A stretch of DNA of 64,000 nt from Ensifer sp. IC3342 (GTDB taxonomy: Bacteria; Pseudomonadota; Alphaproteobacteria; Rhizobiales; Rhizobiaceae), in contig NZ_JADYVE010000019.1 in assembly GCF_020193655.1 (NCBI RefSeq), positions 1-64,000 of the forward strand. Reading direction: 5' to 3'. A program made the position numbers and the translations under genes. The stretch's first letter is position 1. Each line of letters starts with the position of its first letter. Below the pieces are notes generated by a model, which did not search any database, had not been told where the DNA came from, and saw only the letters and a program-made list of their open reading frames with translations. Of the stretch, positions 31,926 to 36,889 are shown piece after piece.

Positions 31926-32444
31926 ATGGTCGTAGCCGAACAACAACGAGCGGAAACGCCCTTCGAACCCTTGCTCCAATTCGAGATGGAGATGGGAGCC
32001 TTCCTGTCGGACTGGCACCACTGCGATCACCTGTCGACCTTCATGGCACGGATGATCAGCCATAACCGGACGGATCCCGTCCGGCATTCGAATTTCTTCT
32101 CATCCGCCCTCAACGAGCTCCTCGAGGTGTCTTTCCGCGGTGGCTCGTCCGACGGCAGCATTGGCTGCGCCATCTATCGCCACGAGGCGACCGAACGGGT
32201 CAAACTCACTTTCCCATGTCCGCCCGGTCAACGGCAGTTCTACCAGGAGGCTGTATCAAAAACCCGCAGAGGAAATGCCTACGCGCGCTATCTCGATGCC
32301 ATTTCAACCGATTTCGCACCGAGCCGGGAGGCTGTCCTTCTGGATCTGGCAATCAATTTCGATGCCGAGATTCACTTGGAGGAAAACGACCCGCCGACGA
32401 TAACGCTCGTTGTCGACCTGCCTCTTGAAGGAATCGTGAGTTGA
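31926..32444 (+). CDS. Degenerate HATPase-like regulator, first gene of a partner-switch operon
   Basis: A 172-residue protein with no family I can name with certainty. Its layout parallels the HATPase protein encoded at 35978. The segment SSALNELLEVSF stands where that protein has the ATP-binding N-box (LTNELIENAVKF), and the C-terminal part (LLDLAINFDAEIHLEE) matches its LLTLMSDYGAHFAWVF. The Asn and glycine-rich loop needed for ATP binding are missing, so it is probably a non-catalytic switch component. Its stop overlaps the next gene's start by four bases. A GAGGAGA ribosome site precedes the ATG. Confidence 0.6.
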   Translation: MVVAEQQRAETPFEPLLQFEMEMGAFLSDWHHCDHLSTFMARMISHNRTDPVRHSNFFSSALNELLEVSFRGGSSDGSIGCAIYRHEATERVKLTFPCPPGQRQFYQEAVSKTRRGNAYARYLDAISTDFAPSREAVLLDLAINFDAEIHLEENDPPTITLVVDLPLEGIVS

Positions 32445-33616
32445 GCACGGCAGTCCTTCCAGCCCCCTTCAAGGCGGAATTCGATCCGAACAGCCAGGAG
32501 TTTTCTCTTTCAGGCGTGGTCCGGCCGCGTTCGGCCGACGAGATCGCTGCAAGCATTTCGCTGCTTAGAGACGCGATCAACAGTGTGCGAGGCGTCTTCT
32601 ACATCAATGTGAAGCGGCTGGTTCAGATGAACAACACTGCCTTTCACGCCGTTGCGCGCATCATTCTCGACGAATGCCGGACGAGGTCAGATCTGCGCTT
32701 CGTCGTCGTAACGTCCAGCGTCGTGGGTTGGACCGAACGTATGTTCGGCCACTTGAATAAGATTGAGCCCCAGGTCTCCGTCGAGGTCTACGATTCGACG
32801 TTCTACCCCGGCCAGAGCTTCGTCGAGGATACGAGCTTCATTCCCATCCTCCGCGCGCAGACGAAAATGACCTGGCGACACGAGCGCACCATCCTCCCGC
32901 GCCACGGCATGCGGCCCGGCATCGCCTTGGCCGACATCTGCTGCGGCATCGGCGATTTCGCCGTGCTCGCGCAGAAGGAATTTCAGCCGGCGCGGATCGT
33001 CGCCCTCGACCACTCGAAGCCGAGCCTCGCCTATGCCCGCAAGGTGGCGGCGGAGTTCGGCGTGACGGGTATCGAATATACCTACGGCGACGCGTCGGAG
33101 ATGCTACTCGAGGACAACCAGTTCGACTTCGTGACCTGCCGGCATTCGCTGCAGATCTTCAATCAGCCGGAGTTGCTGCTCAAGGAGCTCTATCGGATCG
33201 TGAAGCCGGGCGGCCGCGTCTACATCACCAACGAGAAGAACTCGCACTGCCTCGGCGAGCCACGGGCGCAAAGCATCCAATGGACCTACAATGAGCTCGC
33301 GAGGCTTTTGAGCCATTTCGAGATGGATGTGGAACTAGGGCCAAAGAGCCGCCACTATCTCGCCGACGCGGGCTTCGACGACATCCTGGTCGAATCCTTC
33401 ATGGTCACCAATCTGGACGGTGACCCACAGGATTTCGCCGACGTCATCGCCGGCTGGGAGAAGATGTTTGCGGCAATGGCGGCGAGACACGGCGAAGCAC
33501 CCGAATTCATCGACCGGTTTCGCCAGGGCTTCCGGGATCACATCTTCGCGGCACTGCATCCGAAGGGCTATGCAGGCTGGCCGATCTGGGCAGCGTCCGG
33601 GCGCAAACCACTATGA
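32441..33616 (+). CDS. STAS-like domain fused to a SAM-dependent methyltransferase
   Basis: A 391-residue cytosolic fusion. Residues 1-120 look like the STAS-like regulator encoded at 36551, but the phospho-acceptor region reads QMNNTAFHAV where the other has [10 protein letters not shown], so the serines are replaced. Residues 150-385 form a class I methyltransferase: motif I LADICCGIGDF (163-173), acidic loop ALDHS, motif IV FDFVTCRHSLQIF and YRIVKPGGRVYI. The substrate is unknown; UbiE-like enzymes are the nearest look-alikes. The start is a TTG inside TTGA overlapping the upstream stop, and the end overlaps the phosphatase gene by ATGA. Both overlaps indicate coupled translation and perhaps fixed stoichiometry. 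Confidence 0.75.
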   Translation: MSTAVLPAPFKAEFDPNSQEFSLSGVVRPRSADEIAASISLLRDAINSVRGVFYINVKRLVQMNNTAFHAVARIILDECRTRSDLRFVVVTSSVVGWTERMFGHLNKIEPQVSVEVYDSTFYPGQSFVEDTSFIPILRAQTKMTWRHERTILPRHGMRPGIALADICCGIGDFAVLAQKEFQPARIVALDHSKPSLAYARKVAAEFGVTGIEYTYGDASEMLLEDNQFDFVTCRHSLQIFNQPELLLKELYRIVKPGGRVYITNEKNSHCLGEPRAQSIQWTYNELARLLSHFEMDVELGPKSRHYLADAGFDDILVESFMVTNLDGDPQDFADVIAGWEKMFAAMAARHGEAPEFIDRFRQGFRDHIFAALHPKGYAGWPIWAASGRKPL

Positions 33617-36535: not shown

Positions 36536-36550
36536 TGGGCGACGAAAACT

Positions 36551-36889
36551 ATGGAAATCAAAGAAGACGAATATCGAGTTTGGTCGGAAGGCAACGACAT
36601 CCATTTCGACGGGACCATGCGCCTGCCCAGCACCGAGGCCTATGCACCGATCTTTTCCCTGGTGATGAGCGTTCTCGAAACAGAACCGGAACGAATGACG
36701 GTGGACCTCACCGGCTTGCAGTTCCTTAACTCGTCCGGGATCAACCTGCTTGCTAAACTTACCATCGAAGCGCGCAAGCGGCCGAACATGCAGTTCACCG
36801 TCCGGGGAAGCTCGGAATTTCCCTGGCAGTCGAAGTCTCTGCCGAACCTCAAGAAACTGCATCCCGGCGTCGATCTCAGGCTGGCCTGA
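36551..36889 (+). CDS. STAS-like switch protein (slr1659 type)
   Basis: A 112-residue cytosolic protein with a STAS-like fold. The segment [20 protein letters not shown] carries Ser61-Ser62-Gly63 at the phosphorylation site, so it can be the substrate of the neighbouring HATPase kinase and the PP2C phosphatase. It ends the operon. Its closest relative in the window is the N-terminal domain of the STAS-methyltransferase, which lacks these serines. GATGGGCGACG precedes the ATG; the ribosome site is weak and translation may be coupled to the upstream gene. Confidence 0.75.

What the first reader, a model, noticed from the sequence alone, without database searches (positions are those of the whole stretch)
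31926..36889. Five-gene partner-switch operon with a STAS-methyltransferase fusion beside c-di-GMP and glucan genes
Seen: start/stop overlaps (TTGA at 32441, ATGA at 33613) and gaps of 4 and 15 bases tie together a degenerate HATPase, a STAS-like domain fused to a class I methyltransferase, a dCache-HAMP-PP2C phosphatase, an HATPase kinase and a STAS protein. Known: SpoIIE-type phosphatases and HATPase kinases control STAS proteins (Rsb, SiaABCD). In SiaABCD the output is a diguanylate cyclase. Inference: here the output may be a methyltransferase, or the adjacent GGDEF-EAL protein and the BgsA synthase. A methyltransferase driven by partner switching would be new.
Basis: partly seen in the sequence, partly recalled or inferred. 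Interest (0 to 1): 0.88.

Follow-up and report, generated by a model that had tools for sequence, protein, structure and literature searches.

The report
Methyltransferase wired into partner-switch operon
In root-nodule bacteria and their relatives, a five-gene signalling cassette carries a normal on/off phosphorylation switch plus a second, catalytically degenerate copy of that switch attached to a methyltransferase enzyme, which suggests that the methyltransferase is what the cassette controls.

Summary
The five genes are real, tightly packed and conserved: A-B-C-D-E lie in order in 80 of 80 near relatives (best 80 of 208) and in 13 of 14 regions from diverse genomes (the 14th ends at a contig edge). 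D and E are slr1658/slr1659-superfamily proteins: D keeps its N-box, E an invariant N-S-S-G acceptor motif (81/81). C is a SiaA-like sensor phosphatase. A and the N-terminus of B are paralogues of D and E that lost the chemistry: A lacks the N-box Asn and glycine lid (fold match SiaB, Z 14.9); B's STAS has Asn (76), Ala (3) or Ser (2 of 81) at the acceptor site. B's methyltransferase motifs are nearly invariant. In the family sample the same 29 of 247 genomes carry E and B; none carries one alone.

Its methyltransferase-output idea is favoured, but not through phosphorylation of the fusion. I propose that the dead A:B pair is opened by competition, by dephosphorylated E or by D. GGDEF-EAL is a frequent neighbour (79 of 80 close, 6 of 14 diverse regions); bgsA is nearby in 18 of 80. 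Binding, activity and substrate are untested.

The parts
31926..32444 (+). Gene A: GHKL-fold pseudokinase, paralogue of D; N-box Asn-Ala deleted and glycine-rich lid lost
   Evidence: hhalign to D profile E 7e-7, probability 92%; NF047703 E 5e-8, below cut-off; model pLDDT 86, VIA Z 14.9 to SiaB 6kko_B
32112..32138 (+). Degenerate N-box of A (NELLE--VSFR against NELIENAVKFR in D)
   Evidence: N63, E64, L65, E67, F70, R71 at 81/81; gap placed by hhalign; lid absent by eye in the 37 rows
32441..33616 (+). Gene B: STAS (slr1659-like) fused to class I methyltransferase; TTG start overlapping the stop of A
32465..32791 (+). STAS domain of B (about residues 9-117)
   Evidence: NF047705 E 9e-8; hhalign to E profile E 1e-6, probability 91%; AlphaFold model pLDDT 84; VIA Z 9.7-10.9 to SiaC, 10.5 to RsbV, 8.2-9.9 to SpoIIAA
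32633..32635 (+). Position of the lost phosphoacceptor in B (N65)
   Evidence: N 76, A 3, S 2 of 81; aligned with S61 of E
32846..33613 (+). Class I (UbiE-like superfamily) methyltransferase domain of B, SAM motif DICCGIGDF
   Evidence: PF08241 E 2e-19, PF01209 E 1e-17; motif conservation; nearest solved chain 3mgg E 7e-16
33613..35973 (+). Gene C: membrane sensor phosphatase, dCache-like periplasmic domain, HAMP, SpoIIE/PP2C
   Evidence: the only SpoIIE match found in the genome
35383..35967 (+). SpoIIE/PP2C catalytic domain of C
   Evidence: PF07228 E 3.7e-40; D583, D586, D600, D724, D776, D777 at 81/81
35978..36535 (+). Gene D: slr1658-superfamily GHKL protein, predicted active Ser kinase of E
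   Evidence: NF047703 171 bits over cut-off 100; N-box and G-box conserved
36551..36889 (+). Gene E: slr1659-superfamily STAS protein, predicted phosphorylation target
   Evidence: NF047705 135 bits over cut-off 100
36731..36733 (+). Predicted phosphoacceptor Ser61 of E (LNSSGIN)
   Evidence: 81/81; same place as T68 of SiaC peptide LLYLNTSSIK (passages of PMC7647112; placed by eye)
30078..31832 (+). Associated but not invariant: GGDEF-EAL protein upstream
   Evidence: same strand, under 600 bases from A in 79 of 80 close relatives; upstream in 6 of 14 diverse regions

Best explanation
It is a two-layer partner-switch cassette whose output is the methyltransferase of B. Layer 1 (C, D, E): D phosphorylates E on Ser61 and C removes the phosphate when its periplasmic sensor is engaged. 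Layer 2 (A, B): a dead kinase A holds the non-phosphorylatable STAS domain of B in a stable complex that controls the attached methyltransferase. Coupling: dephosphorylated E competes for A, so the state of C and D decides whether the methyltransferase is held or free. Shown by sequence or prediction: gene order, homology of A to D and of B-STAS to E, loss of catalytic residues in A and B-STAS, their retention in C, D, E and the methyltransferase, co-occurrence of B and E. Inferred: every binding event, the direction of control, that the methyltransferase is active, and its substrate.
For: A is homologous to D (hhalign E 7e-7) and B-STAS to E (E 1e-6). Folds: A best matches SiaB, Z 14.9; B-STAS matches RsbV 10.5, SiaC 9.7-10.9 and SpoIIAA 8.2-9.9. 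Both members of the A/B pair lost chemistry: in A the N-box lacks Asn-Ala and no Gly lid is seen in 37 rows (by eye); in B the acceptor is Asn 76, Ala 3, Ser 2 of 81, whereas E keeps N-S-S-G and D keeps NEL.ENA.KFR in 81/81. Methyltransferase motifs D165, G169, G171, D190, D217 are 81/81, and this half has the highest mean identity to the window (0.82; C cytoplasmic part 0.80; B-STAS 0.67; A 0.61). E and B occur in the same 29 of 247 family genomes. A-B-C-D-E are in order in 80 of 80 and 13 of 14 regions while the flanks change. A and B are coupled by a 4-base overlap in 75 of 80. Partial correlations of distance matrices: A with B-STAS 0.44 and A with E 0.16 (0.32 and 0.19 by ranks).
Against: No binding or activity is shown. 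The A/B-STAS correlation is confounded by adjacency on the DNA, and B-STAS with E is not positive (-0.23; 0.02 by ranks). B-STAS correlates as well with D (0.42; 0.34 by ranks), which favours docking on the live kinase, and A with D is 0.24 (0.40 by ranks), although both are kinase-like and are not expected to be a pair. Two of 81 B proteins (L060, L076) have Ser at the acceptor place. GGDEF-EAL is linked in 79 of 80 close relatives, so c-di-GMP could be the output there. For the B-STAS model no Foldseek match reached E 0.001, and unrelated folds reach VIA Z 8.8.
Confidence: 0.45

Rival explanations
1. B's STAS domain docks on the live kinase D in competition with E. When C keeps E dephosphorylated, E occupies D and B is released; A is an accessory chaperone or scaffold.
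For: B-STAS lacks the acceptor in 79 of 81, so it would be a permanent D ligand. B-STAS and D, which are not neighbours on the DNA, have a partial correlation of 0.42 (60% subsamples 0.28..0.54; 0.34 by ranks).
Against: It leaves A, present in every locus examined and overlapping B in 75 of 80, without a clear role. Correlations of distance matrices are weak evidence.
Confidence: 0.2
2. The output is c-di-GMP, as in SiaABCD: unphosphorylated E binds the upstream GGDEF-EAL protein, and the methyltransferase is a side branch.
For: GGDEF-EAL upstream on the same strand in 79 of 80 close relatives, with GGDEF and EAL motifs conserved. A non-rhizobial slr1658/slr1659 pair lies beside a GGDEF protein (L128, by eye). 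SiaC activates SiaD (start of abstract of PMC8457831).
Against: No GGDEF-EAL homologue lies upstream of A in 8 of 14 diverse regions, where the methyltransferase stays. The gap to A varies from 36 to 358 bases and is never an overlap. The GGDEF-EAL frame is broken by a stop in L030 and by a frame change in L058 (errors of assembly not excluded), while A, B, D and E are unbroken in all 80.
Confidence: 0.15
3. The methyltransferase is a feedback (adaptation) enzyme that modifies a component of the switch, for example sensor C, as CheR does for chemoreceptors (CheR role recalled).
For: The methyltransferase half of B and the periplasmic half of C have the highest partial correlation (0.71), and B and C overlap.
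Against: These stretches are neighbours on the DNA, and the same pattern is expected from recombination blocks. CheR scored only E 0.23.
Confidence: 0.08
4. A:B is a constitutive complex, a metabolic methyltransferase with a stabilising partner, and the C-D-E switch regulates an unlinked target.
For: Both A and B-STAS are degenerate, so they may no longer take part in switching.
Against: B and E occur together in 29 of 29 carriers, and gene order is fixed.
Confidence: 0.12

Closest known systems
SiaABCD of Pseudomonas aeruginosa
   Same: PP2C phosphatase, GHKL kinase and STAS target in one operon. C scores 134 bits against the SiaA model; A folds like SiaB (Z 14.9); B-STAS folds like SiaC (Z 9.7-10.9); the acceptor follows Asn in L-N-[ST].
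   Different: C, D and E are all below the SiaA, SiaB and SiaC cut-offs. A second, degenerate kinase/STAS pair is present, and that STAS is fused to a methyltransferase. None of the five genes is a diguanylate cyclase.
slr1658/slr1659 superfamily pairs (cyanobacteria and others)
   Same: D and E score over both NCBIfam superfamily cut-offs. In Kovacikia (L151) and G675 (L153) a pair is adjacent and in the same order (the slr1658 partner read by eye).
   Different: No B was found with those two pairs. The A/B paralogues were seen only in the rhizobial-type cassette, where B-STAS is separated from E with 100/100 support. Disruption of slr1658 impairs recovery from iron limitation in Synechocystis (passages of PMC7555055); no mechanism is given there.
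Rsb / SpoIIAB-SpoIIAA partner switching
   Same: Logic of PP2C phosphatase, GHKL kinase and STAS antagonist; same folds.
   Different: None of the five genes is a sigma factor. A non-phosphorylatable STAS fused to a methyltransferase and paired with a pseudokinase was not found in the searches named under Tried and rejected.
UbiE/MenG and related class I methyltransferases
   Same: SAM-binding domain, PF01209 64.5 bits over cut-off 20.1.
   Different: Far below the UbiE/MenG equivalog cut-offs listed (best 66.5 against 216); carries its own conserved C-terminal region and the STAS domain. Substrate unknown.

Membership tests
slr1658/slr1659 superfamily module | Kinase-like D over NF047703 cut-off (100 bits) | tested here: met
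   171.3 bits
slr1658/slr1659 superfamily module | STAS protein E over NF047705 cut-off (100 bits) | tested here: met
   135.2 bits
slr1658/slr1659 superfamily module | A and B-STAS over the same cut-offs | tested here: not met
   32.5 and 32.4 bits; homologous by hhalign but a distinct branch (STAS only)
SiaABCD | C over SiaA equivalog cut-off (700) | tested here: not met
   134.3 bits, residues 428-784 only
SiaABCD | Kinase over SiaB family cut-off (85) | tested here: not met
   D 14.1 bits; A no match listed
SiaABCD | STAS over SiaC Pfam cut-off (24.5) | tested here: not met
   E 11.6 bits
SiaABCD | Diguanylate cyclase as output | tested here: inconclusive
   GGDEF-EAL linked in 79 of 80 close relatives but 6 of 14 diverse regions
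Partner-switching phosphorylation cycle | Catalytic residues of phosphatase and kinase present | tested here: met
   C Asp positions 81/81; D N-box 81/81, G143 and G145 80/81 each
Partner-switching phosphorylation cycle | Phosphorylatable Ser/Thr in the free STAS protein E | tested here: met
   S61 81/81
Partner-switching phosphorylation cycle | Phosphorylatable Ser/Thr in the STAS domain of the fusion B | tested here: not met
   N 76, A 3, S 2 of 81
Partner-switching phosphorylation cycle | Phosphorylation-dependent exchange of binding partners | not testable with these tools
   needs biochemistry or prediction of complexes
UbiE/MenG | Equivalog score | tested here: not met
   66.5 bits against 216 (NF001244)
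Class I SAM methyltransferase | Methyltransf_11/25 domain over cut-off with motif I | tested here: met
   70.4 bits over 21.2; D165, G169, G171 81/81

The most novel reading that the evidence does not exclude
A duplicated partner-switch pair has been converted into a pseudokinase : pseudo-STAS latch on a methyltransferase, so that a periplasmic signal sets methyltransferase activity by pure binding competition with the live kinase/STAS pair: a partner switch whose output is methylation, read out by a catalytically dead copy of itself.
Probability: 0.4. Interest if true: 0.78.

Novelty: new variant of a known kind. Interest (0 to 1): 0.62.

Why it matters
Partner switches are known to act on sigma factors and on diguanylate cyclases. 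Here a conserved rhizobial cassette, with the fusion gene also present on pSymB of Sinorhizobium meliloti 1021, points to a methyltransferase as the target and uses degenerate copies of the switch proteins as the latch. It gives a concrete system that can be tested in laboratory strains, and corrects a public annotation in which the pseudokinase is called a UbiE methyltransferase.

Tried and rejected
Rejected: bgsA as a fixed part of the system (at least 50% identical match within the fetched flanks in 18 of 80 loci; 17 of the 70 loci of at least 17 kb; orientation varies). Rejected: GGDEF-EAL as a fixed part. Rejected: B-STAS as a phosphorylation target at the canonical place.

Gave nothing useful: the promoter/terminator scan found no more than shuffles. 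PDB sequence search with the D profile had no match, and with the E profile only weak STAS matches. The class of G675 gave G675 alone, 1 of 31 genomes. Four weak slr1659 hits lie in other genomes of the class (L137-L140); regions around three of them were fetched and two held a STAS-like ORF by eye (L154, L156); the fourth was not read. S. meliloti 1021 pSymB has no gene table in the plasmid collection. Locus tags SMb20447-SMb20452 were recalled, not verified, and found no paper.

Literature absence: searches turned up no paper on a STAS-methyltransferase fusion under partner switching; the library lacks most subscription journals, and most of these searches required all terms. Seen as listings only: PMC4614683, PMC7968678 and PMC12589917, PMC9237108, PMC2887360 and PMC9239204, PMC9847131.

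Co-variation of distance matrices is weak: the highest value (methyltransferase half of B with periplasmic half of C, 0.71) most likely reflects recombination blocks. Rows dropped: L121 (contig end) and L001; near-duplicates over 95% were collapsed (59 of 94 kept, 61). L127 is very like L055 and may be the same genome.
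Full report
WHAT IS THERE. Five + strand ORFs, 31926-36889, named A to E here. The junctions are TTGA at 32441 and ATGA at 33613; gaps of 4 and 15 bases separate C/D and D/E. A GGAGGAG lies just before the ATG of A (read by eye). Curated models add precision: D and E score over the cut-offs of the NCBIfam slr1658 and slr1659 superfamilies (171 and 135 bits, cut-off 100), while A and the N-terminus of B match the same two models weakly (32.5 and 32.4 bits; E 5e-8 and 9e-8). 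C has HAMP and SpoIIE domains over cut-off and a dCache_1 match below it, and is the only SpoIIE-type match found in this 7.4 Mb assembly.

TWO PAIRS, ONE LIVE AND ONE DEGENERATE. Profile-profile comparison aligns A with D over 118 columns (E 7e-7, probability 92%) and the STAS part of B with E over 96 columns (E 1e-6, probability 91%). In a tree of 48 STAS domains, B-STAS and E form two groups separated by a fully supported long branch; the root is a midpoint only. The live pair keeps its residues in the window plus 80 loci. In D, N69, E70, L71, E73, N74, A75, K77, F78 and R79 are 81/81, S142 is 81/81, and G143 and G145 are 80/81 each; in E, N60-S61-S62-G63 is 81/81. In SiaC the phosphorylated T68 lies in peptide LLYLNTSSIK (passages of PMC7647112), which puts the acceptor right after the Asn, that is S61 of E. 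In B the same place is Asn in 76, Ala in 3 and Ser in 2 of 81 (L060 and L076), and the next residue is Thr 53, Ala 27, Met 1. In A the N-box is NELLE--VSFR: the Asn-Ala of D is deleted, and by eye no glycine-rich lid is left in the 37 rows. That the N-box Asn binds Mg-ATP in GHKL kinases is recalled knowledge.

FOLDS. The N-terminal 135 residues of B, modelled alone (36 rows, pLDDT 84), give a STAS topology. Foldseek's best matches are SiaC and SpoIIAA chains (best E 4.8e-3, none under 0.001). VIA-align gives Z 11.4 and 11.1 to mycobacterial anti-sigma antagonists, 9.7-10.9 to SiaC, 10.5 to RsbV and 8.2-9.9 to SpoIIAA, while some unrelated folds reach 8.8. A (37 rows, pLDDT 86) matches SiaB first: Foldseek E 9e-5; VIA Z 14.9, rmsd 2.6 over 142 residues; next come SpoIIAB and UsfX chains at Z 11-12. 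So A:B looks like SiaB:SiaC with both active sites lost.

THE METHYLTRANSFERASE. The C-terminal half of B is a class I SAM methyltransferase, UbiE-like at superfamily level (PF08241 E 2e-19; PF01209 E 1e-17) but far below the UbiE/MenG equivalog cut-offs. D165, C167, C168, G169, G171, D172, D190 and D217 and the stretch Y261 to P274 (except I262) are 81/81. It has the highest mean identity to the window among 59 representatives (0.82; C cytoplasmic 0.80, E 0.73, C periplasmic 0.71, D 0.67, B-STAS 0.67, A 0.61), a narrow lead over the phosphatase. Solved chains with similar sequence (3mgg, LahSB, phosphoethanolamine and C-methyltransferases) do not point to one substrate.

CONSERVATION. The search for related loci confirmed 208 relatives of B and kept the best 80. 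These are close relatives (named records: Sinorhizobium/Ensifer, Rhizobium, Neorhizobium, Pararhizobium, Mesorhizobium, Aminobacter, Phyllobacterium); the other 128 were not seen. A-B-C-D-E are in order on one strand in 80 of 80; A, B, D and E read unbroken in all 80, and C is in two frames in L054. A and B overlap by 4 bases in 75 of 80 and B and C in 73 of 80; B starts with TTG in 75 and GTG in 5 (starts chosen by script). In 14 regions fetched from diverse genomes (B identity 61-76%), 13 have all five in order and L121 ends at a contig edge. Three of these come from one genus in another family of the class (f62). In a class sample, 5 of 387 genomes had the full-length fusion, the window's own among them; the other 159 positives have best E 7e-18 or weaker, and the rows listed cover the methyltransferase part only. 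In a family sample, 29 of 247 genomes (13 of 106 genera) have B at E 1e-60 or better (G511 is split by contig ends). The same 29 have slr1659 matches, each exactly two, one over and one under the cut-off. In a phylum sample, 14 of 397 genomes had slr1659 matches: 9 of the window's family, each with both forms; G675 with the free form only; and 4 weak matches. Among plasmid records, B is found in 120 and E in 121; the genus counts agree except Sinorhizobium (80 with B, 79 with E), and one Burkholderia and one Kovacikia record have E only. The cassette is thus patchy between species, but in the family sample E was not found without B, nor B without E.

WHAT IS NOT FIXED. A GGDEF-EAL gene lies upstream on the same strand in 79 of 80 close relatives (L028 is the exception) but in 6 of 14 diverse regions. 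In some regions without it, other signalling genes sit there: short SpoIIE phosphatases pointing away from A in L115, L118 and L120, one more with a cNMP-binding domain in L120, and a type VI secretion gene (TssG) in L122. A bgsA homologue is within the fetched flanks in 18 of 80 loci, in more than one orientation. Outside the rhizobial type, a slr1658/slr1659 pair lies next to a GGDEF protein (L128) or before a transporter-like ORF (L151), both read by eye. The constant companion of the switch in this family is the methyltransferase fusion.

MECHANISM. From partner-switch logic (SiaABC: kinase SiaB and phosphatase SiaA set T68 of SiaC; passages of PMC7647112), C and D would set the phosphorylation of E. 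B can hardly follow E as a substrate, since its STAS lacks the acceptor in 79 of 81 and its neighbouring kinase-like partner is degenerate. A non-phosphorylatable STAS bound to a non-catalytic kinase is a latch that only a competitor can open. The cassette supplies two: dephosphorylated E (a paralogue of B-STAS, able in principle to take A) and D (a paralogue of A, able in principle to take B-STAS). I put the first ahead because A is always present and coupled to B; the distance-matrix analysis does not decide it. Partial correlations (by ranks, in brackets): A/B-STAS 0.44 (0.32), neighbours on the DNA; B-STAS/D 0.42 (0.34), not neighbours; C-phosphatase/E 0.49 (0.37), expected enzyme/substrate; D/E 0.29 (0.03); A/E 0.16 (0.19); A/D 0.24 (0.40); B-STAS/E -0.23 (0.02). 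The largest, 0.71 (0.68) between the methyltransferase half of B and the periplasmic half of C, is best read as a recombination block. None of the binding steps is shown.

NOVELTY. The folds and the live pair are known kinds; the new features are the degenerate duplicate pair and its fusion to a methyltransferase. The literature searches turned up no report of it in the open-licence library. PMC8546604 (passages) describes functional diguanylate cyclases of S. fredii, one with a degenerate EAL domain; I could not tell whether any is the GGDEF-EAL gene here. PMC5567048 (start of abstract and passages) describes BgsA; the passages I saw do not mention the five genes. PMC8457831 was seen only as the start of its abstract.

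Noticed in passing
   Followed up: partly
L150:6486-7004: A public record annotates the pseudokinase A as 'ubiquinone biosynthesis methyltransferase UbiE'; the methyltransferase is the next gene.
   Followed up: yes
window 32441: B starts with TTG in 75 and GTG in 5 of 80 relatives, never ATG, and overlaps the stop of A by 4 bases in 75 (starts chosen by script). A conserved weak start may keep B in step with A.
   Followed up: partly
window 32846-34900 and homologous loci: The methyltransferase half of B and the periplasmic half of C diverge together (partial r 0.71), out of step with flanking stretches, which suggests recombination or replacement of this block.
   Followed up: partly
L030:4366-6075, L058:5631-7237, L054:9149-11603: Broken frames: GGDEF-EAL with a stop in L030 and a frame change in L058; sensor phosphatase C in two frames in L054. 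Assembly errors are not excluded.
   Followed up: no
L122:1745-4548: The cassette lies near a type VI secretion gene (TssG) and a methyltransferase with a MethyTransf_Reg domain.
   Followed up: no
L118:13013-15720: After gene E, on the opposite strand, there is a protein-kinase-like ORF and a second methyltransferase with a MethyTransf_Reg domain.
   Followed up: no
L115:5613-6578, L118:6938-7864, L120:10146-12900: Short SpoIIE phosphatases, and one with a cNMP-binding domain, point away from A in regions where no GGDEF-EAL gene was found upstream.
   Followed up: partly
L008 and L028: Ensifer aridi LMR001 carries two copies of the five-gene cassette on different contigs.
   Followed up: no
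16453-21417: 1654-aa protein with DMFA2_C, DUF4082, putative Ig and cadherin-like domains.
   Followed up: no
54120-56024: Adenylate/guanylate cyclase domain together with TPR repeats in one protein.
   Followed up: no
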